Shown piece after piece: positions 37,641 through 48,634 of a stretch of 64,000 nt of DNA. How positions within the stretch are numbered: the first letter of the stretch is position 1; each line of letters opens with the position of its first letter. Under the pieces are notes generated by a model. The model worked only from the letters and a program-made list of their open reading frames with translations, did no database searches and had not been told where the DNA came from. The translations under genes were made by a program, and so were the position numbers. This DNA is from Frondihabitans sp. PAMC 28766 (GTDB lineage: Bacteria > Actinomycetota > Actinomycetes > Actinomycetales > Microbacteriaceae), in assembly GCF_001577365.1 (NCBI RefSeq), contig NZ_CP014513.1:2542001-2606000 (forward strand), read 5' to 3'.

Positions 37641-38936
37641 TCAGTAGGTGCTCAACAGGTCGCGGAGCACGCGACTGCCGAAGGTTAGCGCGTCGAGCGG
37701 CACTCGCTCGTCGACCCCGTGGAACATGGCGGGGAAGTCCATCTCTTCGGGCAGGCGCAGCGGCGCGAAGCCGTACCCCTTGATGCCGAGGAGGCTCAGC
37801 GCCTTGTTGTCGGTGCCGCCGCTCAGGAGGTAGGGCAGCACGGGCGCGCCCGGGTCGTGCCGGTCGAGCGTGCTCTTGATCGAGTCGACGAGCGGGCCGC
37901 CGAACTCGGTCTCGAGCCCGATGTCGGTGTGCATCGTGACGATCTCGATGTCGTCGGCGATCAGATCCTGCACCTGCGCGAGAACGGTCGCCTCGTCACC
38001 CGGCATGCACCGGATGTCGACGAGCGCCTCGGCCGTGTCGGGCACGACGTTGTGCTTGTAGCCGGCGACCAGCTGCGTGGGGTTGGTGGTGACGCGGAGG
38101 CTGCCGCGGATGAAGCCGGACGCGGTGCCCGTCTTGAGCACCAGCTCGTCGGGGCTCGTGCGCTCGGGGTCGACCTCGAGGATCTTCGCGACCTCGCGCA
38201 GGAGGCCGGTGGTCGTCTCGGTGAGGGCGACCGGCCACTCCTGGCGGCCGAGCGTGGCGACGGCTTCGGCGAGCTTCGTCACCGCGTTGTCCGTGATCAT
38301 CTGCGAACCGTGGCCCGCAGTGCCGCGCGCGATGAGCTTGATCCAGATGAGGGCCTTCTCGCCCGTCTGCAGGAGGTAGGCGCGCTTGCCGTCGATGAAG
38401 GTCGAGTAGCCGCCGACCTCGCTGATCGCCTCGCCCATCCCGTCGAACAGCTCGGGGTGGTTCTTGACCAGGTAGTGCGAGCCGAGCACTCCCCCGGCCT
38501 CCTCGTCGGCGAGGAAGCCGAGCACGAGGTTGCGGGCCGGCTTCTCACCCGCGCGCAGGATGTCGCCGACGCTGGTCAGCATCATGGCGTCCATGTTCTT
38601 CATGTCGACGGCGCCGCGACCCCACAGCATGCCGTCTTTGACCTCGCCGCCGAACGGATCGACAGTCCAGTTCGCAGGATCCGCGGGCACCACGTCGAGG
38701 TGGCCGTGCACGACGAGCCCCGCCTTGTCGGGGTCGCGCCCCTCGACCTTCGCCAGCACGCTGTGGCGGCCCGGCTCCGACTCGAACATCAGCGGCTCGA
38801 GCCCGAGGTCTTCGAGCTTCGCCGCGACGTACTCGGCCGCGTCGGTCTCGCCGTTCGACTTGCCGCCCCCGTAGTTGGTCGTGTCGAACCGGATGAGCTC
38901 CTGGGCGATCCGTGCTGTCTCGTCGAGATCGGTCAT
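37641..38936 (-). CDS. M20-family metallopeptidase / amidohydrolase
   Basis: This 431-residue enzyme has the M20 zinc ligands: His and Asp in VVHGHLDVVPAD (about residue 88), Asp in RGAVDMKNMDAM, the Glu pair in LADEEAGGVLGS, and a C-terminal His in MFHGVDERV. A dimerisation domain lies between about 195 and 310. It is likely an aminoacylase, dipeptidase or deacetylase. It ends seven bases before the uppP start. The start MTDLDETARIAQ at 38936 matches the family N-terminus. It matches the Rv2141c position in Mycobacterium. Confidence 0.9.
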   Translation of the reverse strand: MTDLDETARIAQELIRFDTTNYGGGKSNGETDAAEYVAAKLEDLGLEPLMFESEPGRHSVLAKVEGRDPDKAGLVVHGHLDVVPADPANWTVDPFGGEVKDGMLWGRGAVDMKNMDAMMLTSVGDILRAGEKPARNLVLGFLADEEAGGVLGSHYLVKNHPELFDGMGEAISEVGGYSTFIDGKRAYLLQTGEKALIWIKLIARGTAGHGSQMITDNAVTKLAEAVATLGRQEWPVALTETTTGLLREVAKILEVDPERTSPDELVLKTGTASGFIRGSLRVTTNPTQLVAGYKHNVVPDTAEALVDIRCMPGDEATVLAQVQDLIADDIEIVTMHTDIGLETEFGGPLVDSIKSTLDRHDPGAPVLPYLLSGGTDNKALSLLGIKGYGFAPLRLPEEMDFPAMFHGVDERVPLDALTFGSRVLRDLLSTY

Positions 38937-39153
38937 GTCGACCACGCTACCGGCTCGGTGCTGGGTCTCTCGTCGCGGGCCTCGGTTCGGCGTCGCGACA
39001 CCCCTCGTTCCGGACGACCTTCCAGCGCCGCGGCGCAAGGGCCTTGGCCGGGACCGAGGGTGTCGCCCCGGCACCGCCGAGGGGGCTGCCCGTGTCTGAG
39101 CAGGGGCTCGAGTCGTGCTAATGTCTTCCAGGCGGTTACGCCGCACAACACTC

Positions 39154-39238
39154 GTCCGGGTGGCGGAAATGGCAGACGCGCTAGCTTGAGGTGCTAGTGC
39201 CCGTATAGGGCGTGGGGGTTCAAGTCCCCCCTCGGACA
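39154..39238 (+). tRNA. tRNA-Leu (anticodon GAG)
   Basis: The 85-nt class II tRNA folds with acceptor arms GTCCGGG and CTCGGAC (one G-T pair), anticodon stem CTAGC/GCTAG with loop TTGAGGT (anticodon GAG at 39188-39190), a long variable arm (TGCCCGTATAGGGCGT) and T arm GGGGGTTCAAGTCCCCC. Discriminator base A follows; CCA is not encoded. It reads CUC and CUU leucine codons. Confidence 0.97.
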
Positions 39239-39257
39239 CACTGGTTGAGACAGTTGC

Positions 39258-39285
39258 GAAGGCCCCGGTTCACGCCGGGGCCTTC
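39258..39285 (+). terminator. Terminator hairpin after tRNA-Leu
   Basis: GAAGGCCCCGG and CCGGGGCCTTC form a perfect 11-bp stem with a 6-nt loop, 20 bp after the tRNA. Confidence 0.85.
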
Positions 39286-39308
39286 GTGTGCGTCTGGCGC
39301 CCTTCCCT

Positions 39309-39383
39309 CGCCGACGCACCTCCGACCAGACCGGATTGAGCCCTGATGGCCGCGGGATCCGTCGGATCAAAGGTGCCTCGGCG
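39309..39383. repeat. 75-bp palindromic element, copy 1
   Basis: The left arm CGCCGACGCACCTCCGACC is inversely repeated, with a few mismatches, by GTCGGATCAAAGGTGCCTCGGCG at the right end. The unit is exactly 75 bp, as are copies 2 (42592) and 3 (46997). It lies between the tRNA terminator and a methyltransferase gene. Confidence 0.8.
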
Positions 39384-39455
39384 ATGCCGCGGTCAGGCGT
39401 GTCCGCGGCGCGTCCGGGCGAGGGATCCTGCCTGCCGGCGCGGTAGCGTCGAGGC

Positions 39456-40100
39456 GTGAGCGACGACGACCTGGCGCAGACGAGGGCCGCCTACGACACG
39501 GTGGCCGCGAGCTACGCGCAGCTGTTGCCCGACGTGGCGTTCGAGGCTCCCCTCGACCTCGCCATGATCGCCGATTTCGTCGAGGAGTTGCCACGGGGCG
39601 CCCAGGTGCTGGACGCAGGATGCGGGGCGGGCAGGATGCTCACGCTCCTCGCCGACCTCGAGCCGTCCCTCGTGCTGACGGGGGCCGATCTCTCGCCGGG
39701 CATGGTCGCGCAGGCCCGGTCCTCGCATCCGGGTGTAGCGATGATCGAGGCCGCGAATGCCTCTCTCCCTTTCCCTGATGGGGAGTTCGACGGGATCCTC
39801 GCCTGGTACTCGATCATTCACACGCAGCCGGGCGAGCTCGGCCCGGTCGTCAGCGAGTTCCGGCGTGTGCTGCGGTCGGGCGGAGTGGTGCTTCTCGGGT
39901 TCCAGGCGGGGACTGGCGTGCACGAGCGCAGCGGCGCTTACGGCCACGAGGTCGGTCTCCTCCGCAGTTACCTGCACGAGACGGATGCCGTAGCCACGCG
40001 GCTGGAAAGGTCGGGCTTCCGCATCCTGGCCCGCCTCGATCGTGCCGCGCGCCCCTCGGAGAAGGACGGCCAAGGGTTCGTGTTGGCTCAGGCGTACTGA
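39456..40100 (+). CDS. Class I SAM-dependent methyltransferase
   Basis: This 214-residue protein has SAM motif I VLDAGCGAGRMLTLL (about residue 51), the acidic strand LTGADLSPGMVAQA, post-II PFPDGEFDGILAWYSIIH and motif III FRRVLRSGGVVLLGFQAG. The substrate is unknown. It starts at a GTG preceded by weak GAGGC. It is the first of three methyltransferases in the accessory stretch. Confidence 0.88.
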   Translation: MSDDDLAQTRAAYDTVAASYAQLLPDVAFEAPLDLAMIADFVEELPRGAQVLDAGCGAGRMLTLLADLEPSLVLTGADLSPGMVAQARSSHPGVAMIEAANASLPFPDGEFDGILAWYSIIHTQPGELGPVVSEFRRVLRSGGVVLLGFQAGTGVHERSGAYGHEVGLLRSYLHETDAVATRLERSGFRILARLDRAARPSEKDGQGFVLAQAY

Positions 40101-40279
40101 CCCAGGGCGCGAGGTGCGGCGGTTGCCGCGAGCCGCTCGTGGCCGATAGCGTGGCCGCGATGTCCGAACTCCGGGGATAGGCCGACGAGCGCGCGCCGCG
40201 TGCGTGCGCTCGTCGTCGACCCCTTTTCGCAGCCGCCCCGATCGAGACCTTCTCGGGGCGCCTGACCCTGGAGCCTTTC

Positions 40280-41476
40280 ATGACCCGCCCCACCCGGGCG
40301 GTGAGTTACAGCGCCGTCCTCCGCCTGCCCGGAGCCCTGCGCACGTTCTCCGCCGCCCTCATCGGTCGCCTCTCGTACGCGACCGTCTCCCTTGCGCTCC
40401 TGCTGACCGTGCAGCGCGCCACCCACTCGTTCGCCGACGCCGGCACTGCGCTCGGGGTCTACGCCCTCGCCAGTCTGTCCATGCCCGCGAAGGCCCGACT
40501 CATCGACCGCTTCGGCCGGCGACGCATGCTGCCGCTCTTCGGATCCGGGTTCGCGGTCGCGTTCGCCGCGCTCGCAGCAGTCGCCCGAGGAGGACTGCAT
40601 CAGGGGGCCCTCCTGCTCGCCCTGTCGGCTCTGGCCGGCCTGTGCGCTCCCCCGCTCGGGCCTTCCATGCGGGCGATGTGGGCCGAGCTGACCCCGGATC
40701 CTGCGGCTCGACTGCGCGCCTACAGCCTCGACGGCATCGTCGAGGAGGCGCTCTACGCCGTCGGGCCGCTCGTCGTCGGCGGCGTCGTCGCGATCTCGAG
40801 CCCGGCGACGGCCCTGCTGCTGAGCGCGGGCGTCAACCTCGTCGGCTCGGTCGGAATGGCGTTCTCGACGGCGGCCCGCAGCGCGAGCGGCCCGGCTCCC
40901 TCCCTCTCACGGGCGGCAGGATCGGGGGTGCTCGGGTCGCCGGCGTTTCTCCTGTTGGCCGCCTCGGTGCTCGCTCTCGGGCTCGGAACGGGCCCGGTCG
41001 AGGTCGCCGTCACCGCCGTGAGTCAGGAGGCGGGGCGGGGCGACGCCGTCGGGATCCTGTTCGCCGCGGTGTCGGTGGGCGGCGCCGCCGGTGGTCTCGG
41101 CTGGGGTCGGCTACCGCATCGCTCTTCTGCAGGTGTGCAGCTCGCCGTTCTCGTCGCCGTGGCCGCCGCTGCCGAGCTCGCGGCGGCATTCGCGCCGACG
41201 CTGCTGTCTCTCGGCGCCGTTCTGGTGGTGCTCGGGGCGGCGATGACGCCGGCGATCGTCGTCGCGTACGTCGCGTCGGATCACTTCGTCCCCGACGCCA
41301 GACGGGCCGAGGCGAGCACGTGGATCGGCACGGCCACCAACGTGGGCGTCGCTGCGGGTGCGGCGCTCGCCGGAGTCGCCGTCGACCATGTCGACCCGCG
41401 GCTGGCCCTCATCGTCGGCGCCTGCGTGCTGCTCGCGGCGGTCGCCCCGGCACTGCTCGTCCGTAGGCGATCGTGA
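40280..41476 (+). CDS. MFS transporter
   Basis: This 398-residue protein has about twelve membrane helices, with the motif-A-like loop KARLIDRFGRRRMLP between helices 2 and 3. It resembles small-molecule or drug exporters of the YfcJ/AraJ type. The ATG follows GGAGCC. Its stop lies inside the 52-bp palindrome at 41474, so that element may terminate it. Confidence 0.88.
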   Translation: MTRPTRAVSYSAVLRLPGALRTFSAALIGRLSYATVSLALLLTVQRATHSFADAGTALGVYALASLSMPAKARLIDRFGRRRMLPLFGSGFAVAFAALAAVARGGLHQGALLLALSALAGLCAPPLGPSMRAMWAELTPDPAARLRAYSLDGIVEEALYAVGPLVVGGVVAISSPATALLLSAGVNLVGSVGMAFSTAARSASGPAPSLSRAAGSGVLGSPAFLLLAASVLALGLGTGPVEVAVTAVSQEAGRGDAVGILFAAVSVGGAAGGLGWGRLPHRSSAGVQLAVLVAVAAAAELAAAFAPTLLSLGAVLVVLGAAMTPAIVVAYVASDHFVPDARRAEASTWIGTATNVGVAAGAALAGVAVDHVDPRLALIVGACVLLAAVAPALLVRRRS

Positions 41477-41525
41477 ACCTCGAAACCGACAGGATTCGGG
41501 GCAGATCCTGTCCGGTTGGAGGTTC
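41474..41525. repeat. 52-bp palindromic element related to the 75-bp family
   Basis: TGAACCTCGAAACCGACAGG and its inverse at 41504-41525 pair with two or three mismatches around an 8-nt loop. The right half, GATCCTGTCCGGTTGGAGGT, closely resembles the right half of copy 2 (GATCCTGTCCGATCGGTGGT). It starts at the MFS stop, so it may double as its terminator. Confidence 0.75.
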
Positions 41526-41569
41526 AGGCCGGCGCGCGCGGGGATCCTGCGGCGGCTAGCCTCGCAGAC

Positions 41570-42121
41570 ATGGGCGGTGGCGACGACGGAGCGCAGGCGG
41601 GCGCCGTGCGGCTTCGGCCTCTCCTGCGGGAGGACGCGGCGCGCATCCACGAGTGGGCGTCGCAGCCGACCGCGTGCCGGTTTCAGCCGTGGGGGCCGAA
41701 CTCGCCCGCCGAGACGGAGGTGTTCGTCGACGGCGCGGTCGCGGCCTGGGAGCAGGGGCCTCAGATGCGCTGGGTGTGGGCCGCCGCCGCCGCTGACACG
41801 GTCGTCGGCATCGGCGAGGTGCAGCGCAAGGAGGTCGACGCGGCCGAGATCTCGTACGCCGTGCACATCGACCTCTGGGGCCGTGGCATCGCGACGTGCA
41901 TCGGGCGGCTGCTGGTCGCGTGGGCGCTCGAGAACCTCGACGTCGGCAGGATCACCGCCACCTGCGACCCACGCAACGTCGCGTCCGAGCACGTGCTGAG
42001 GGGTCTCGGCATGCAGCTCGAGCGCACCGAGAGTCACAGCCTAATGCTGCGCGACGGCTGGCGCGACTCGTACGTGTTCTCCCTCGCCCGGCGCGAGTGG
42101 TCGGCGAGGATGGAGGAATGA
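41570..42121 (+). CDS. GNAT-family N-acetyltransferase (RimJ/RimL-like)
   Basis: This 183-residue protein has the acetyl-CoA loop VHIDLWGRGIATCIGRLLVAWA (R/Q-X-X-G-X-A) at about residues 102-123, followed by RITATCDPRNVASEHVLRGLGM, the usual Asn-Ala-Ser segment. It probably acetylates a protein N-terminus or a small amine. It overlaps the following Nudix gene (ATGA). Start MGGGDDG chosen because the fold begins at VRLRPLLREDA. Confidence 0.88.
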   Translation: MGGGDDGAQAGAVRLRPLLREDAARIHEWASQPTACRFQPWGPNSPAETEVFVDGAVAAWEQGPQMRWVWAAAAADTVVGIGEVQRKEVDAAEISYAVHIDLWGRGIATCIGRLLVAWALENLDVGRITATCDPRNVASEHVLRGLGMQLERTESHSLMLRDGWRDSYVFSLARREWSARMEE

Positions 42122-42561
42122 AGAGAATCGCGGGCCGCGTCATCTTGCTGCACGACGATTCGGTGCTGCTGATGCGGGGCGGTGACCCGGCCAGGCCGGA
42201 GGCCGGCGAGTGGCTGTTCACGATCGGCGGCGGGTGCGAGCCCGGCGAGACCACGGCCGAGGCAGCCAGGCGCGAGGCGTTCGAGGAGGCGGGTGTGCGC
42301 CTTTCGGTCGACCTCGGGCCCGTCGTGCTGCGGCGCGAGATCGAGTTCCCGTTCAACGGCGACGTACTCGAGCAGTCGGAGGAGTACTACCTCTGCCGGG
42401 TGACCGACACCTCGATCGACTCGTCCGGCTGGACGGACCTCGAGCGCGCCAGCATCAGCGGTGTCGCCTGGTGGCCTCTCGACGAGCTGCGCGCAACAAC
42501 CCTCCCGGTCTTCCCCGATGGCCTCGTCGCCCTGGTCGACGCCGCGCTCGCCGCCGGCTGA
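42118..42561 (+). CDS. Nudix hydrolase
   Basis: This 147-residue protein has a complete Nudix box beginning at GGGCEPGETTAEAARREAFEEAG (about residues 37-59). MKRIAGRVILLHDDSVLLMRG is the typical N-terminal strand. The substrate is unknown. Coupled to the GNAT gene by ATGA, it may share a substrate or simply an operon. The 75-bp palindrome copy 2 begins 30 bp after its stop. Confidence 0.88.
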   Translation: MKRIAGRVILLHDDSVLLMRGGDPARPEAGEWLFTIGGGCEPGETTAEAARREAFEEAGVRLSVDLGPVVLRREIEFPFNGDVLEQSEEYYLCRVTDTSIDSSGWTDLERASISGVAWWPLDELRATTLPVFPDGLVALVDAALAAG

Positions 42562-42591
42562 TCCCGGCCCGCGGCCGCGCGCCGCGCCGTG

Positions 42592-42666
42592 CGTCGACGC
42601 ACCTCGGATCAGACCGATTCGTGCCTTCGAGGCCGCTGATCCTGTCCGATCGGTGGTGCCTCGGCG
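42592..42666. repeat. 75-bp palindromic element, copy 2
   Basis: The left arm CGTCGACGCACCTCGGATC and right arm GTCCGATCGGTGGTGCCTCGGCG are inverse copies with mismatches. Its right end lies five bases before the next gene's GTG, so it could influence translation or carry promoter function. Confidence 0.8.
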
Positions 42667-42670
42667 ATCG

Positions 42671-43323
42671 GTGACGGCAGTGACCGACGACCTGGACGAC
42701 ATGCTCACGGCTTTGCTGGCGGGGCTTCCGACCGACGGGCGAGTGCTGCTGGCGATCGACGGCGTCGACGGCAGCGGTAAGAGCACGTTCGCGGCAGCGC
42801 TCGCCGGCCGGGTGTCGAGGCGGCCCGCGGTCGTCATCCACGTCGACGACTTCCTGAACCCGTCGGCGGTCCGTCACCGGTGCGGCCGCGGCTCGCCCGA
42901 AGGGTTCTGGCTCGACACCTATGACTACGACGCGTTTCGGTCGTCCGTGCTCGAGCCGCTCGGGGCCGGCGGGAGTGGCGTGTACCGGGCGTCCTCCTTC
43001 GACGCCTTCTCCGGCTCGTCGGCGCCGGGGCCGGTCGAGCGGGCCGCCGACGACGCGCTCGTCATCGTCGAGGGGATGTTCCTGCACCGCGACGAGCTGG
43101 TGGGCACGTGGGGCCGCTCGGTCTTCCTCGACGTCCCCTTCAGCGAGACGGCGCAGCGCATGGCCGCCCGAGACGGCTCGAACCCCGACCCGGAGCACCC
43201 GTCGATGCGGCGCTACATCGAGGGCAGAATCTCTACTTCGCCAGCTGCCGGCTCTGGGAGCGCGCCGACCTCGTCATCGACAACACCGACCCGGATCACC
43301 CCCGCGGGGCCTGGACGCGGTAG
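42671..43323 (+). pseudogene. Uridine-kinase-like P-loop kinase with one frameshift
   Basis: Two frames join near 43222-43226 to give about 217 residues. The first has Walker A AIDGVDGSGKSTFAAALAG, HVDDFLNPSAVRH, SPEGFWLDTYDYDAF and VIVEGMFLHRDEL, all uridine-kinase-like. The second supplies the C-terminus (YFASCRLWERADLVIDNTDPDHP) and an in-frame stop. One missing C in ggcc/cag would restore GQNLYFAS. GTG 42671 is taken as start; the GTG at 42680 is an equal alternative. Sequencing error and true decay are both possible. Confidence 0.75.
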
Positions 43324-43346
43324 GAGAGCCGTGCAAGGCTCGGCGG

Positions 43347-43607
43347 GTGGACTCGCTGAACGAACTGTCGCCGATGCGACCGGTGCACGCCGACGACGTC
43401 GTGCCCGAGTCGCGCTGGGCGGCGTCGCCGAGCAAGGCGGTGTTCGGTCTGGCCGTGTACATCGCTGTCGGGGCCGTCGTTCTCCTTGCCGAGGACGTGT
43501 ACCGGATCCCGATGGCCACGGTGATCCTGGTCGGCGGTCTCATCCTGCTCGGTCTCGTCGTCGTGTCCATCCCGTTCGGAATTCGCCGACGCCGACGCCG
43601 TGGCTGA
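43347..43607 (+). CDS. Small two-helix membrane protein
   Basis: This 86-residue protein has helices at about residues 31-48 and 54-75 and an Arg-rich C-terminus (IRRRRRRG). No family recognised. GTG start at 43347; ATG 43374 is an alternative. Its end overlaps the following methyltransferase by eight bases. Confidence 0.6.
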   Translation: MDSLNELSPMRPVHADDVVPESRWAASPSKAVFGLAVYIAVGAVVLLAEDVYRIPMATVILVGGLILLGLVVVSIPFGIRRRRRRG

Positions 43608-44239
43608 CGACGCGTTACCCCCTCCCGCCGACGTGCGTGACGAGACTCTCGCGACCTACGAGGCGCACGCCGATCGCTACGCCGAGCGGACTTCGGGCGG
43701 CCGCTCCACGCTGGTGGCCGAGCTGGTCGACCTGACGGCGGCAGGATCGCGGGTGCTCGAGCTGGGCAGCGGCCCCGGTCGCGACGCGGCCGATCTCGAG
43801 CGGGCCGGGCTGGTAGTCGACCGCACCGACGGGGCGGCGGCGTTCGTCGAGCGTTTCCGGCGGAAAGGCTTCGAGGCGCGCCTCCTGAACTTCTACGACA
43901 CGGCCTTCTACGATGCCGACTTCAGCGAGCCGTACGACGCGGTCTTCGCCAACGCCGTGCTGCTGCATGTCGATCGCGATCGGCTCGCCGGTGTTCCGCG
44001 TAGCGCGCCAGGCCACGCGTGTCGGCGGCGTTCTCGCGGCGTCGTTCAAGAAAGGTGACGGCGACGAATGGTCGACCCGCAAACTCGATTCGCCGAGGCA
44101 CTTCACCTACTGGCACGAAAATGAGCTGCGGGGCGTGCTCGAGCAGTCGGGCTGGGAGACGCTCAGCGCGGTCGAGTCGACCACGGGAGGGTCGGCCGAG
44201 CGGTGGATCACGGTGACCGCCCGGCATCCTGCCCCCTGA
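43600..44239 (+). pseudogene. SAM-dependent methyltransferase with one frameshift
   Basis: The first frame carries SAM motif I VLELGSGPGRDAADLERAG and FDAVFANAVLLHVDRD-like motifs up to about 43994. The second continues FRVARQATRVGGVLAASFKKGDGDEWSTRKLDSPRHFTYWHENEL to the stop. Removing one T from the TT at 43994-43995 would restore one 212-residue protein. The join follows the usual order of this methyltransferase group (GD-G-WS, then PRHFTYW). Recent loss or an assembly error. Confidence 0.75.
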
Positions 44240-44246
44240 TCTCTTC

Positions 44247-44657
44247 TCAGACGTCGAGGGCGTCGCGTGCGCCGGGCTTCGGGGCGAGCGAGACTCGGGC
44301 CCGCAGGGCGCGACCGCGCTGCACGAGGGCGTAGCTGGCCGGGTGCACGACGAGTCGAGCGGCGCCCAGCAGGTGGTCTTCGACGTCGGACATCACCTCG
44401 CTGAGGGCCGGCGTGTGCGGCTCGACGAAGCGGAAGGACGAGCGTCCGACAGGGGCACCGGCCGCGTCGAAGAGAGTCATGTCGATGCCGTCGGCGAGCG
44501 GCTCGTCGTCGCGGCTGAAGACGGCGAGCACGCCTGCGGCGCGTCGGCGGTCGCGGCCGCGGAGGTCGGAGATGTCTGGAAGGTCGGCGGCGTCGCCGGG
44601 TGGCGCGGCGTCGCCGGCCGGCACGCTGCCGACAGGCCGTTCGGGTGAAGCGGGCAC
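44247..44657 (-). CDS. Hypothetical protein
   Basis: This 136-residue protein has an acidic, Pro/Ala/Gly-rich N-terminus (about residues 1-35), then mixed alpha/beta sequence (RRAAGVLAVFSRDDEPLADG, RSSFRFVEPHTPALSEV, RLVVHPASYALVQRGRALRARV). I recognise no domain. It lies between the broken methyltransferase and the carbamoyltransferase gene, six bases from the latter, so the two may share an operon. It may be a small regulatory or stress protein, but nothing proves this. Confidence 0.6.
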   Translation of the reverse strand: MPASPERPVGSVPAGDAAPPGDAADLPDISDLRGRDRRRAAGVLAVFSRDDEPLADGIDMTLFDAAGAPVGRSSFRFVEPHTPALSEVMSDVEDHLLGAARLVVHPASYALVQRGRALRARVSLAPKPGARDALDV

Positions 44658-44663
44658 GGCGGG

Positions 44664-45485
44664 CTACCCGAGCCCGAGCGCGTACGCCATGACGGCCTGC
44701 TGCACCGGCAGCAGCGACGCCTTGAAGCCGTAGCCGACGAACGCCGGCCCCGCCACGGCCTCCGCGCTGACTTCGCGCCCGCGCGCGAACGGCGGCACCG
44801 GCGCGAGCTTCACAGCTGCAGGCGCCAGGGCCAGCAGCTCGGCGGTGATCGTGAACGGCGCCATCGCCTCAGCATGCGCACCGGGGCCATCCGTCAGGAT
44901 CACGTCGGCGTCGCGAACCGCCGACCGCACGTCACCGCTCCAGCGGCAGCCTGGCATGGCCAACTCATCGGGACAGCACTGCACCAGGTCGAGATCGAAG
45001 GCCCGGGCCGCCTCCGCCCAGGCGCGCGACAGGTTGCCGTCGGGGCCGACGAAGACGAATCGGAGGCCGCGGATCTCGTGATCCTGCCCCAGCGTGTACA
45101 GGTCGGAGAGCACCTCGCACGGGTGGTTCTCGTCGGTCATCGCGTTGATCACCGGCAGCACACCGGACTCGGCCAGCCCGTCGAGCACGCGGATGGCGGG
45201 GTGCCGCACCACGAGCACGTCGACCCAGGGTGCGAGGTACCCGGCGACATCGCCGAGCGCCTCCGGCTTGTCGAGGGTGTCGGCCGGCAAGACGATCGGC
45301 TGGAGCCCCATCAGCTCGGCCCCGCGTTCGAACGAGACGCGGGTGCGGAGGCTCGTCGGCGGGAAGAACATCGCCGCGCACCCGTTCGTCGTCGGGCCCG
45401 CGCCGCGCGCATAGGCGTCGGCGAGGGCGACGACCGCTTCGAGGCCGGCCGGGGCCCAGTCGTCGAGCCGGATCAGGTGGCGCAT
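44664..45485 (-). CDS. Aspartate/ornithine carbamoyltransferase-like protein
   Basis: This 273-residue protein matches the two-domain carbamoyltransferase fold. The carbamoyl-phosphate loop is SLRTRVSFERG (SXRTR), and NHPCEVLSDLYT replaces the usual HPCQ/HPTQ. The C-terminal HCLP-like segment is VKLAPVPPF. The length is short (usual 300-330), and the Glu in place of Gln would change the carbamoyl-phosphate site. So it may act on a different substrate than ornithine or be a biosynthetic-cluster enzyme. No arginine gene is nearby. Confidence 0.8.
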   Translation of the reverse strand: MRHLIRLDDWAPAGLEAVVALADAYARGAGPTTNGCAAMFFPPTSLRTRVSFERGAELMGLQPIVLPADTLDKPEALGDVAGYLAPWVDVLVVRHPAIRVLDGLAESGVLPVINAMTDENHPCEVLSDLYTLGQDHEIRGLRFVFVGPDGNLSRAWAEAARAFDLDLVQCCPDELAMPGCRWSGDVRSAVRDADVILTDGPGAHAEAMAPFTITAELLALAPAAVKLAPVPPFARGREVSAEAVAGPAFVGYGFKASLLPVQQAVMAYALGLG

Positions 45486-45494
45486 CCGCCCACG

Positions 45495-46028
45495 CTAGTC
45501 GCGTGCGACGAAACGCCACGTGAGCAGGTCGCCGTCGTCGGCATCCCAGCTCGTGCCGGTCTGCGTGAAGCCGACCTTCGCGAGGACGCGGGCGCTCGCG
45601 AGATTGTCGACCGCAGTCTCGGCCGTCACCGCGGCGACACCGGGCAGGGTGAGCACGAACGCCGTGAGCGCGCCGACCGCCTCGGTGGCGAGGCCCCGGC
45701 CCCAGATCTCGCGGTTGAAGCCGTAGCCGATCTCCTGTTCGCCGACGTCGTTCGGGGCGCCCTTCGTGCCGAGCTGACCGATAGCGACCTTCGTCTCGAG
45801 CAGGATGGCCGTGAAGTGACCCGCTGCCTCGTCGAGGTCGTCGTCGAGGCGGTCTAGTTGACCGCGGAACATGCCGAGCGCGTCGCCCGGCCAGCTCGGC
45901 GGGAACTCGACGGTGGCGGGGCCGTCCGAGAGCTGGTACTCCAGCTCGAAGCGGTCGCTCTCGAGCCGCCGCGTCATGGCGGCGCGGGTCAGCGGGAGGA
46001 GGTTCAGGCGCGGAGTCTGCAGGATCAT
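45495..46028 (-). CDS. GNAT-family N-acetyltransferase
   Basis: This 177-residue protein starts MILQTPRLNLLPLTRAAM, the RimJ/RimL-type opening. It has YGFNREIWGRGLATEAVGALTAF (acetyl-CoA loop GRGLAT) and VTAETAVDNLASARVLAKVGF. Likely an acetyltransferase of a protein N-terminus or small molecule. It ends nine bases before the carbamoyltransferase start on the same strand. Confidence 0.88.
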   Translation of the reverse strand: MILQTPRLNLLPLTRAAMTRRLESDRFELEYQLSDGPATVEFPPSWPGDALGMFRGQLDRLDDDLDEAAGHFTAILLETKVAIGQLGTKGAPNDVGEQEIGYGFNREIWGRGLATEAVGALTAFVLTLPGVAAVTAETAVDNLASARVLAKVGFTQTGTSWDADDGDLLTWRFVARD

Positions 46029-46165
46029 CGCGGCCGACGCTAGCAGGGCGACGCGGGTCCGGCCGGTCGGGGTCGAACCACGCGATCCCCTTAGCGCCAC
46101 CGGATGCCGTGGCTCGATCGGGATCGCATGGTGCGAAGCCGGCGGCCTTCGGTAGGTTCGAGCGC

Positions 46166-46978
46166 ATGGACGTCGATCACAACGGAGCACACCTCTGGGC
46201 CGAGACCTCGGGGCCGGAGGGCGCGCCTGGCGTGGTGCTGATCCACTCGGGCATCGCGACTGCGCGCATGTGGGATCCCCTCCTGCCCGAGCTGGCCGCC
46301 GCACGCCGCGTCGTCCGGTACGACGCCCGGCAGTTCGGCCGCACCACGGCGGGCGACGCCTCGTTCTCGGACGTCGACGACCTGCTGGCGGTGATGGACG
46401 CCGCCGGCGTCGAGCGTGCGACGCTCGTCGGTGCGTCCCGCGGCGGCGGGATCGCCCTCGACGCAGCGCTCGCCCACCCCGCACGAGTGTCGGGCCTCGT
46501 GACGATCGGCTCGAGCCCCAGCGGTTTTCCCGAGCCCGAGCTCACCGCCCGCGAGCAGGCGGCGTCCGATCGCCTGGACGAGCTCGAAGCGCAGGGCGAG
46601 CACCTCGCCGTCAACCGCCTCGAGGCCGAGCTCTGGGCCGCGGGCACCACCCGCGAGCTGAGCGACCTCGATCCCGTCTTTCTCGAGAGGGCGTACGCGC
46701 TCAACCTCGAGAACCTCCCGCACGCCTCCGCTGCGGGCACCCGCGTGCCTGCGGCCCCGCTCGCCTTCGGCCGCACCGGCGAGATCACCGTTCCCGCTCT
46801 GGTGACGATCGGCGAGCACGACCTCTCGCCCCTGCATCCTGCGGCCGACGACCTCGTCTCGACGATGCCGGACGCGACGCTCATCCGCTTCGCCGACAGC
46901 GCCCACTCCCCCAGCATCGAGCACCCGGCCCGCTTCGCCGCCGTCCTCATGCCCTGGCTCGCCGCCCACTCCCTCTAG
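46166..46978 (+). CDS. Alpha/beta-hydrolase
   Basis: This 270-residue enzyme has the nucleophile elbow LVGASRGGGIAL (Ser near residue 96), oxyanion IHSGIATARMW, acid Asp in GEHDLSPLHP and catalytic His in DSAHSPSIEHP. It is an esterase, lipase or epoxide-hydrolase-like enzyme without a signal peptide. The ATG at 46166 follows GGTTCGAGCGC; an upstream in-frame extension is unlikely because the fold begins directly. Confidence 0.88.
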   Translation: MDVDHNGAHLWAETSGPEGAPGVVLIHSGIATARMWDPLLPELAAARRVVRYDARQFGRTTAGDASFSDVDDLLAVMDAAGVERATLVGASRGGGIALDAALAHPARVSGLVTIGSSPSGFPEPELTAREQAASDRLDELEAQGEHLAVNRLEAELWAAGTTRELSDLDPVFLERAYALNLENLPHASAAGTRVPAAPLAFGRTGEITVPALVTIGEHDLSPLHPAADDLVSTMPDATLIRFADSAHSPSIEHPARFAAVLMPWLAAHSL

Positions 46979-46996
46979 CTGCCCGCCCCCCTCCAG

Positions 46997-47071
46997 CGCC
47001 GAGGCACCTCCGGTCAGACAGAAACAGGGCTCCCCTCGCGCAGATCGCGTCGGATCGGAGGTGCCTCGGCG
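46997..47071. repeat. 75-bp palindromic element, copy 3 (best-preserved)
   Basis: The arms CGCCGAGGCACCTCCGGTC and, at the right end (47049-47071), GTCGGATCGGAGGTGCCTCGG plus CG, are inverse copies over 23 bp with two mismatches. The loop is about 29 nt. It is intergenic, 18 bp after the alpha/beta-hydrolase stop. Confidence 0.85.
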
Positions 47072-47143
47072 CGCAGCGCGACGGCTGGGCGCGTTCGCCT
47101 GGCGGAGCAGCGCCGCAATGCGGTCGTATGAGACGGTGGTGTC

Positions 47144-47788
47144 ATGCTGGCGCTGCTCGATCTCGACGAGACTCTCGTCGATCGGCGGGGTGCTTTCGAC
47201 GAGTGGGCGGCAGCGTTGGTCGCAGAACACGAGCTCGGTGTCGGGAGCTCTGCTGCGCTCGGCGATCTCGACACCCGCTTTCCGCGGCGCGACGTGTTCT
47301 TCGAGAAGGTGGCAGAGCGCTGGAATCTGGGTATGCCCGGCACCGCCCTCTGGGACGACTACCGCCGCGCGATGCCGGCCCTGACGAGGCCGTTCGCCGG
47401 GGTGCCGGCCGCCCTCCAACGCCTGCGGCTCGAGGGCTGGCGCCTGTTCGTCGTCTCGAACGGAAAGACGGACAACCAGACGGGCAAACTGCACCGAGCG
47501 GGTCTCGCGCCGCTGCTCGACGGTTGGTTCATCTCCGAGCGCGTCGGCCACCGCAAGCCGACACCGGAGTTCTACGAGCGGGTCTTCGCCGAGATGGGTG
47601 GGCGCCCCGCCGAACCGGTGTGGCTGGTCGGCGACAACCCGGTCGACGACATCGAGGGCGGCCGGCTGCAGGGCTTCAGCACGGTCTGGGTGAGCCACGG
47701 GCGGCCATGGACGGGCGAGCTGGCGCCGCCCAGCGCGGTACGAGAGAGCACGGTCGCAGCGCTTCGCCACCTGGCCGCGCAGCGCTGA
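47144..47788 (+). CDS. HAD-superfamily hydrolase
   Basis: This 214-residue protein has LLDLDETLVDRRGAF (motif I), VVSNGKTDNQTGKL (motif II), GHRKPTPEFYERV (motif III Lys) and VWLVGDNPVDDIEGG (motif IV). It resembles YjjG/phosphoglycolate-phosphatase-type small-molecule phosphatases. Substrate unknown. Confidence 0.88.
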   Translation: MLALLDLDETLVDRRGAFDEWAAALVAEHELGVGSSAALGDLDTRFPRRDVFFEKVAERWNLGMPGTALWDDYRRAMPALTRPFAGVPAALQRLRLEGWRLFVVSNGKTDNQTGKLHRAGLAPLLDGWFISERVGHRKPTPEFYERVFAEMGGRPAEPVWLVGDNPVDDIEGGRLQGFSTVWVSHGRPWTGELAPPSAVRESTVAALRHLAAQR

Positions 47789-47845
47789 CCGGCCCGGAGC
47801 CGCACGCCGAGGCGCGAGGCGAGCGCGCAGAGGTACAGTGCCGCC

Positions 47846-48634
47846 ATGAGCGACACCGCCTTCGAGACGACGCGACCGGACGACTACATGCTGCGGGTCG
47901 CGGCCTCCGACGTGGGCCGCGGTTTCAAGGCGGCGGCGCTCGAGGAGCTGCGGCTGAGGCCGGGGCTGCGGGTGCTCGACCTGGGCTGCGGGCCGGGCGC
48001 CGACCTGCCGGAGTTCGCCGCGGCGGTGGGGCCCGAGGGCCGAGTCGTCGGCATCGACCGTGACGCCGAGGCTCTCGCGACGGCTGCGGCGCGGACGGCC
48101 GAGCTCGCGCAGGTCGAGCTCCATCACGGCGACATCCACGCCCTACCGCTCGGCGGCCGCAGCGTCGACCGGATCCACACCGACCGCGTCCTGCAGCACG
48201 TCGAAAGCCTCCTCGACGTCCTCACCGAGGCGCGACGGGTCATCGCCGACGATGGCCGCGCGGTCTTCGTCGAGCCCGACTGGGACACCCTCGTCATCGA
48301 CTCCGCCGACTCCGACACCTTCCACGACTACCGGAGGTTCGTCACCGAGCGCGTGGTGCGCAACTCGTTCGTCGGGCGGCAGCTGCCGGGCGTCGCCGAG
48401 AGCACCGGCTGGCACGTCGAAACCGTCCGACCGATCACCGCGGTGTACCGCGGCCTGCGCGAGGCCGACGCCGTCCTCGGCTTCCACCGGGTGGCCATGC
48501 GCGCCGTCGAGTACGGCTACCTGTCCGGCCCTCAGGCGCACGCCTGGCTGCACGGTCTCGGCACGCGCCCGTTCTTCGCGTCGGTCACCCTGTTCATCCT
48601 GGTCGCGACCCCGGCACCTGGAGGCGCACAATAG
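47846..48634 (+). CDS. Class I SAM-dependent methyltransferase
   Basis: This 262-residue protein has SAM motif I VLDLGCGPGADLPEFAAAVG (about residue 46), the acidic VVGIDRDAEALATAA, HALPLGGRSVDRIHTDRVLQHV and VIADDGRAVFVEPDWDTLV. It is a UbiE-like methyltransferase, often found acting on small molecules. It ends 34 bp before the sensor/regulator fusion. Confidence 0.88.
   Translation: MSDTAFETTRPDDYMLRVAASDVGRGFKAAALEELRLRPGLRVLDLGCGPGADLPEFAAAVGPEGRVVGIDRDAEALATAAARTAELAQVELHHGDIHALPLGGRSVDRIHTDRVLQHVESLLDVLTEARRVIADDGRAVFVEPDWDTLVIDSADSDTFHDYRRFVTERVVRNSFVGRQLPGVAESTGWHVETVRPITAVYRGLREADAVLGFHRVAMRAVEYGYLSGPQAHAWLHGLGTRPFFASVTLFILVATPAPGGAQ

What the first reader, a model, noticed from the sequence alone, without database searches (positions are those of the whole stretch)
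39309..47071. New 75-bp palindromic element in three copies within 8 kb
Copies at 39309-39383, 42592-42666 and 46997-47071 are each exactly 75 bp and share arms of the type CGCCGAGGCACCTCCGATC / inverse, with variable centres. They sit between genes of the accessory region, and compensating differences between arms suggest that pairing is conserved rather than sequence alone. They look like REP/MITE-type elements that could be mobile or act as terminators or RNA structures. I know of no named family with these arms.
Basis: seen in the sequence. Interest (0 to 1): 0.72.

Follow-up and report, generated by a model that had tools for sequence, protein, structure and literature searches.

The report
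Fixed-length palindromic repeat at gene ends
An actinobacterium carries 15 scattered copies of an exactly 75-letter mirror-image DNA element, mostly just behind genes, and its constant size and conserved arms suggest a docking site for an unknown DNA-binding protein rather than just an RNA hairpin.

Summary
The three copies exist as described. The genome has at least 15 copies, all exactly 75 bp: two 23-bp inverted arms (CGYCGAGGCACCWCCGATCNGAC) around 29 bp of nearly unrelated sequence. Two of six congeners (genus inferred as Frondihabitans) carry versions with different arms. What is kept is arm sequence and length. Eleven of 15 copies lie within 30 bp of, or overlap, a stop codon. No Rfam match, T-tract, solo arm, visible target duplication or REP-type transposase was found. 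Similar palindromes, nearly all 58 bp from CACC to GGTG, occur in Curtobacterium and Frigoribacterium (roughly 31-43 copies per genome; there the stems do covary), and the 58-bp layout recurs in genomes of two other families of the order. Best reading: a derived subfamily of a fixed-geometry palindromic site at transcription-unit ends, recognised as DNA by an unidentified protein, whose copies also turn over between species. Protein and function are inferred. New variant of the known kind "intergenic palindromic repeat"; my seven literature searches listed no description of it.

The parts
39309..39383 (.). element copy 1 (75 bp): arms 39309-39331 and 39361-39383, 29-bp centre; 69 bp after tRNA-Leu
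42592..42666 (.). element copy 2 (75 bp): arms 42592-42614 and 42644-42666; 30 bp after the stop codon of a NUDIX gene
46997..47071 (.). element copy 3 (75 bp): arms 46997-47019 and 47049-47071; 18 bp after the stop codon of an alpha/beta-hydrolase gene
46076..46133 (.). copy of a second palindromic family of this genome ('fam3', AACCACGCGATCC...GGATCGCATGGTG), exactly 58 bp
41474..41526 (.). copy of a third palindromic family ('fam2', TGAACCTC...GAGGTTCA), 53 bp (49 bp from AACC to GGTT)
38995..39066 (.). copy of a fourth palindromic family ('fam4', CGACACCCC..CAGCGCCGCGGCGC..GGGTGTCG), copies elsewhere in the genome
39154..39239 (+). tRNA-Leu (GAG); last feature of the block conserved in all six congeners, left border of the accessory stretch
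39456..40100 (+). methyltransferase gene downstream of copy 1
42118..42561 (+). NUDIX gene upstream of copy 2
46166..46978 (+). alpha/beta-hydrolase gene upstream of copy 3
47144..47788 (+). HAD-type hydrolase gene downstream of copy 3

Best explanation
Each 75-bp element is a DNA recognition site made of two inverted 23-bp arms held at a fixed distance (29 bp apart, arm centres 52 bp apart, about five helical turns). An unidentified protein, probably a dimer or higher oligomer touching both arms, recognises it as duplex DNA at the ends of transcription units (inferred). The arms and the spacing are kept by selection; the centre is nearly free; the hairpin in RNA is a by-product of the symmetry in this species. 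It is a derived subfamily (59 bp from CACC to GGTG) of a wider class with a common layout: CACC at one end, GGTG at the other, nearly always 58 bp in all, often with a second CRCC box 19 bp further in, mostly at gene 3' ends, with lineage-specific arm sequences. Shown: copy number, exact length, arm conservation against centre, lack of compensation, placement, turnover between species, similar elements elsewhere. Inferred: the protein, its binding, the role (boundary or end mark of transcription units), and common descent with the 58-bp elements.
For: 15 of 15 copies exactly 75 bp; when the spacing was left free between 8 and 38, all 8 listed of 10 counted matches in this genome had 29 bp. Arms are 85% identical between copies, centres 38% (27% when shuffled), so arms are held while centres are not. 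Arm variation is independent on the two sides. A second family of the genome (fam3) keeps 58 bp in 15 of 18 recognised copies, also without compensation (320 of 416 paired, 318.9 expected, P 0.44; the 16 rows tested include one chance match inside a gene). 11 of 15 copies are within 30 bp of or overlap a stop codon, against 16.8% of intergenic points. One convergent gap is occupied by differing palindromes in 4 of the 7 genomes of the genus. 58-bp elements in Curtobacterium and Frigoribacterium; the same layout in two other families.
Against: No protein was identified and no binding shown. In Curtobacterium and Frigoribacterium the stems do compensate, also within two subfamilies, which fits a hairpin better than duplex DNA. 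The link of the 75-bp family to those elements rests partly on a search pattern taken from it, so outer-arm similarity is by construction; the model of the 58-bp elements reaches only 8 of the 15 copies at E up to 0.1. The length is not absolute elsewhere: one search lists one place of 54 and one of 56 bp, and G001 has 28-, 29- and 19-bp spacings. Presence or absence differs between congeners at several sites, which a needed host site would not predict. Neighbouring genes share no theme. 4 of 15 copies are not next to a stop codon.
Confidence: 0.42

Rival explanations
1. Non-autonomous mobile repeat (REPIN/ERIC/MITE-like): a transposase acting in trans recognises the two arms and copies the element into tolerant places just behind genes; the conserved arms reflect that recognition.
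For: Species-specific arms alike within each genome; copies cluster (three within 7.7 kb, P 0.004); sites without an element in congeners; the MOSC protein at the 3113392 copy has its last residues and stop codon inside the element while a relative 93% identical over 86% of it ends differently.
Against: No common target-site duplication seen by eye in the flanks, no solo arm (first 19 nt, at most 1 mismatch) in the genome, PF01797 in 0 of 7 genomes of the genus, no match of one copy in plasmids or phages nor of the arm pattern in viral contigs, and centres so unlike that the copies do not look recently made.
Confidence: 0.33
2. Bidirectional transcription terminator or mRNA 3'-end hairpin: the transcript folds into a long stem that ends or protects RNAs of tandem and convergent genes.
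For: Position right after stop codons and between convergent genes; strong predicted stems, z-scores from -2.8 to -9 in ten folds; compensating changes in Curtobacterium and Frigoribacterium elements.
Against: In this genome no compensation in two families; columns 20/56 unpaired in 11 of 15 copies; no T-tract; a fixed stem length is not a property of terminators that I know of (recalled).
Confidence: 0.2
3. Passive relics: old copies of a once-active palindromic repeat now drifting without function.
For: Presence/absence differences between species.
Against: Arms 85% and centres 38% identical with no length change in 15 copies: neutral decay would erode both alike.
Confidence: 0.05

Closest known systems
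REP elements / REPINs (Pseudomonas, enterobacteria)
   Same: Dispersed extragenic palindromes near gene 3' ends, conserved inverted arms with a variable spacer, lineage-specific sequence (partly recalled)
   Different: A Y1/RAYT-type transposase gene was found in 0 of 7 genomes of the genus; tens rather than hundreds of copies (REP copy numbers recalled); no GTAG end
CGTC-tagged palindromic repeats (PMC3733652; abstract and passages seen)
   Same: Palindromic repeats without a dedicated transposase; 6 of the 30 arms here begin CGTC
   Different: REPs there are 20-40 bp, and CGTC repeats were reported from five phyla that do not include Actinobacteria; here 75 bp, and 18 of 30 arms begin CGCC
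ERIC / RIME / Bru-RS / Rickettsia palindromic elements (recalled, not tested)
   Same: Intergenic palindromic repeats of roughly 75-130 bp, some extending reading frames
   Different: Other hosts; no sequence comparison made; a strictly constant length over nearly random centres is unusual as far as I recall
DNA uptake sequences paired in terminators (Neisseria, Pasteurellaceae; PMC1852404, passages seen)
   Same: Inverted pairs of a lineage-specific motif behind genes
   Different: Those are about 9-11 nt and generally occur 1,000 times or more; here arms of 23 bp, 15 pairs, no solo arms
Integron attC sites (recalled)
   Same: Imperfect palindrome directly behind a gene, outer and inner boxes
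   Different: Conserved arm sequence and dispersed single copies rather than cassette arrays; no integrase search was made

Membership tests
REP/REPIN | Associated IS200/IS605-type Y1 (RAYT) transposase | tested here: not met
   PF01797 in 0 of 7 genus genomes; 5 of 14 control genomes positive
REP/REPIN | Extragenic palindromic repeat, inverted arm pair | tested here: met
MITE | Terminal inverted repeats shared with an autonomous element | tested here: not met
   All 18 arm matches (first 19 nt) with at most 1 mismatch lie in the elements; this genome only
MITE | Target-site duplication | tested here: inconclusive
   No common duplication seen by eye in the 10-bp flanks of 15 copies; copies look old
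Intrinsic (Rho-independent) terminator | GC-rich stem followed by a T-tract | tested here: not met
   0 sites in window 38900-47600, shuffles mean 1.9; flanks of the other copies seen only
Structured RNA family | Compensatory base-pair changes among copies | tested here: not met
   for this family; met for the Curtobacterium and Frigoribacterium elements
Known Rfam family | Match at the curated score | tested here: not met
   Window: tRNA only; 16 copy regions holding 14 of the 15 own copies and 3 of G001: only tRNA at or above a gathering score; one sub-threshold overlap with a copy (mir-4868, E 0.51)
DNA uptake sequence | Very many copies of a short motif, mostly unpaired | tested here: not met
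58-bp CACC...GGTG palindromes of Curtobacterium/Frigoribacterium | Outer CACC/GGTG boxes at fixed distance, gene 3' ends | tested here: met
   59 instead of 58 bp; (outer similarity partly by construction of the search)
58-bp CACC...GGTG palindromes of Curtobacterium/Frigoribacterium | Inner CRCC box at 20-23 and covarying apical stem | tested here: not met
   No covariation in the 75-bp family and no constant inner box in its alignment; in fam3 an inner box, no covariation
Integron attC | Recombination by an IntI integrase | not tested
   no search made

The most novel reading that the evidence does not exclude
Across the order there is one class of palindromic site with conserved geometry (CACC box, 15 bp, CRCC box, 12 bp, mirrored; 58 bp in all) and freely changing lineage-specific arms, placed at gene 3' ends and read by an unknown conserved protein that measures distance on DNA; the finding is one of its divergent lineages.
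Probability: 0.25. Interest if true: 0.75.

Novelty: new variant of a known kind. Interest (0 to 1): 0.5.

Why it matters
Intergenic palindromic repeats are well known in other phyla; the seven literature searches I made listed none for Microbacteriaceae. A repeat whose length is constant while its centre is nearly random and its arms do not compensate separates 'sequence and distance are read' from 'a hairpin is read', which is rarely possible for such elements. If the 58-bp layout really is shared across families, it points to an unknown protein acting at the ends of actinobacterial transcription units, and gives a direct bait to find it.

Tried and rejected
Local triplication: rejected, 15 copies spread over the 4.35-Mb contig. 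RNA structure family: rejected for this genome. REP/RAYT: rejected. Ends of a resident transposon: no solo arms. DNA uptake sequence: rejected. Regulon operator: neighbours share no theme. Plasmid or phage carriage: no match of one copy, of the arm pattern in viral contigs or of one Curtobacterium element in plasmids. tRNA-linked element: 3 of 15 copies lie near a tRNA. Chromosomal domain mark: positions not significantly non-uniform (KS P 0.14), though clustered. attC was considered from recall only. A length count of all CACC...GGTG hairpins in the loci at hand peaks at 58 bp, but most loci had been fetched for that length, so it says little.

Limits: the CM searches scored only the best 121-150 first-look candidates per genome, so copy numbers are lower bounds; halving strand matches to count copies is an estimate. 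My gene caller is simple (it missed an apparently broken gene at 42679-43323 and calls no tRNAs); distances are approximate. The shuffles do not remove relatedness of copies. Template-switch correction of quasi-palindromes could also make compensating changes without selection. The 58-bp copies of other genera were fetched because they fit a 58-bp pattern or model; less biased are fam3 (fetched by blastn) and (free spacing). Rows dropped: three weak rows; five genomes with a single match each, not examined (one, G061, has the sequence of L086, which lies inside a predicted gene), 16 of the 21 matching genomes (14 with one match, G333 and G365 with two), taken as chance without individual study because the reversed control matched 16 genomes once each; of G616's 14 matches seven were read.
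Full report
What is there. The three copies are at the stated coordinates, each 75 bp, with 23-bp inverted arms and unlike centres. The window is G000:C1:2542001-2606000 of a 4.77-Mb genome. Its genus is inferred to be Frondihabitans: congener G006 has a contig of 2,336,702 bases, the length given for the contig of a protein named from Frondihabitans peucedani.

Copies. A covariance model from 14 copies found 15 copies in the genome, all 75 bp, on the 4.35-Mb contig. Two of six congeners have relatives. G001 has nine places, mostly 74 bp, with arms like CGCCGAGACACCCTCGACCCGAC. G004 has five places that score far lower, with arms like GAGGCACCCCCG..TGGCCA. None of the 33 genomes of other genera matched. 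No arm (first 19 nt) with at most one mismatch lies outside the elements.

Sequence, not pairing. Within G000, arms pair in 305 of 345 cells against 307.4 (sd 3.3) when right halves are dealt to other copies; the centre pairs in 93 of 210 against 98.8 and folds no better than left/right chimeras. Seven 74-bp G001 copies and five G004 copies likewise show no excess pairing in the arms (131 of 161 against 131.0; 86 of 115 against 87.9) or centre; G001 centres fold slightly better than chimeras (42 of 300 chimeras as good). Column pairs 7/69, 13/63, 15/61 and 20/56 are often mismatched. Yet arms are 85% identical between G000 copies and centres 38% (27% after shuffling), and no copy has a length change. 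With spacing left free between 8 and 38, all 8 listed of the 10 matches counted in G000 had 29 bp; of six in G001 four had 28, one 29 and one 19. So in G000 arm sequence and distance are kept, not complementarity.

Place. Of 15 copies, 11 lie within 30 bp of a stop codon or overlap one: 648772, 684889, 1461596, 2403188, 2404285, 2584592, 2588997, 2715129, 3113392, 3370174, 4081864. Such points make up 16.8% of intergenic points. Two more follow tRNAs by 69 and 99 bp (2581309, 2114422), one lies between a gene start and tRNA-Arg (3098298), one is unclear or divergent (3505486). Neighbouring genes share no theme. Three copies within 7.7 kb is more clustering than chance (P 0.004).

Turnover. In the gap convergent with an AMP-binding-enzyme gene, G000 and G004 have elements of this family, G001 a palindrome of the 49-bp class whose arm holds the left gene's stop codon as called, G003 another GCACCCC palindrome with tandem arms; G005 has an 11-bp gap; in G002 and G006 I saw no such element. 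Between the creatininase and PNPOx genes I saw no such palindrome in five congeners: the aligned protein ends are about 8 to 90 nt apart there, against about 127 in G000. Between the CMP-deaminase and kumamolisin-like genes G001 has about 60 nt against about 200. At 3113392 the last residues and stop codon of a MOSC-domain protein are encoded by the element, while a homologue 93% identical over 86% of the query ends differently.

Other families in the genome. Blastn of 38600-48000 against the genus showed more intergenic palindromic families of this genome in the window. Fam3 (window 46076-46133) has 15 of 18 recognised copies at exactly 58 bp (one is 59, two unresolved) and no compensation (320 of 416 paired, 318.9 expected; the 16 rows include one chance match inside a gene). 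Fam2 (41474-41526) is 53 bp; fam4 (38995-39066) is longer.

Relatives elsewhere. A pattern from the arms found 18 stretches in the collection of 84,980 species genomes. Eight are intergenic palindromes, all in Curtobacterium (three strains) or Frigoribacterium; the other ten lie inside predicted genes and look like chance. A model from seven of the Curtobacterium copies gives 62, 86, 72 and 80 strand matches (roughly 31-43 copies) in Leaf183, ZW137, Curtobacterium sp. 9128 and Frigoribacterium Leaf8; in the listed part nearly all are 58 bp from CACC to GGTG, with one place of 54 bp in ZW137 and one of 56 bp in 9128. The 22 and 20 copies read in Leaf183 and Leaf8 are 58 bp on at least one strand. 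Placement: 16 convergent, 4 tandem, 1 divergent, 1 at a contig end (17 of 22 within 35 bp of a stop codon); and 10 convergent, 8 tandem, 2 divergent (10 of 20 within 35 bp). There pairing is conserved: 523 of 572 against 453.1 (sd 8.5) and 483 of 520 against 394.1 (sd 10.9); within subfamilies 377 of 416 against 360.4 (none of 5000 shuffles) and 215 of 234 against 207.3 (P 0.004), weaker in two small sets (P 0.04 and 0.07). An exact-layout pattern (CACC N15 CRCC N12 GGYG N15 GGTG) matched 21 of 396 genomes of the order; the reversed pattern matched 16, once each. Good stems were found in G616 (14 matches, seven read, 19-25 of 26 pairs) and G541 (4; 18-26), one other family, and in G382 (3; 20-25), a third family; G325's two are poorer (16 and 19). 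Of 33 other Microbacteriaceae in that sample one matched, once. The Curtobacterium model reaches 8 of the 15 G000 copies at E up to 0.1, in register with one extra base; outer similarity is partly built in by how the relatives were found.

How it most likely works. Constant distance, conserved arms, nearly free centre and independent arm changes fit a protein that touches both arms on duplex DNA, about five turns apart. Place suggests a role at transcription-unit ends. This is inference. The main rival is a non-autonomous mobile repeat, supported by species-specific arms, sites without an element in congeners, and clustering, but lacking a known transposase, visible duplications, solo arms or recent copies. 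A plain terminator lacks a T-tract in the window and compensation in this genome.

Literature. Searches listed nothing on such repeats in Microbacteriaceae; I saw the listings only. Passages were seen of PMC1852404, PMC2267715 and PMC3733652.

Noticed in passing
window 46076-46133: Second palindromic family of the genome (fam3), 58 bp in 15 of 18 recognised copies, without covariation.
   Followed up: partly
window 38995-39066: Another long palindrome family (fam4) with centre CAGCGCCGCGGCGC and about ten further copies in the genome.
   Followed up: partly
window 42679-43323: P-loop kinase-like gene right after element copy 2 seems, by eye, to change frame near 43220; not called by my gene finder.
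   Followed up: no
window 43600-44239: Methyltransferase-like reading frame that looks, by eye, split between two overlapping frames (43600-44058 and 43913-44239).
   Followed up: no
window 39154-39239: tRNA-Leu marks the point where adjoining similarity to all six congeners stops: likely border of a genomic island.
   Followed up: partly
L143 (G003), gap left of the AMP-binding gene: Tandem left arms (GCACCCCCGTCCGG..) before a full palindrome: arms can occur as direct repeats in a congener.
   Followed up: no
L155 (G002), behind the DUF2071 orthologue: A GGCACCCG...CGGGTGCC palindrome directly behind the stop codon, at the place where G000 has its 3370174 copy; none seen by eye in the four other congeners fetched.
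   Followed up: no
L232, L250-L255 (G616): 58-bp hairpins with CCGCTG stems, 14 matches in one genome of another family of the order, seven read.
   Followed up: partly
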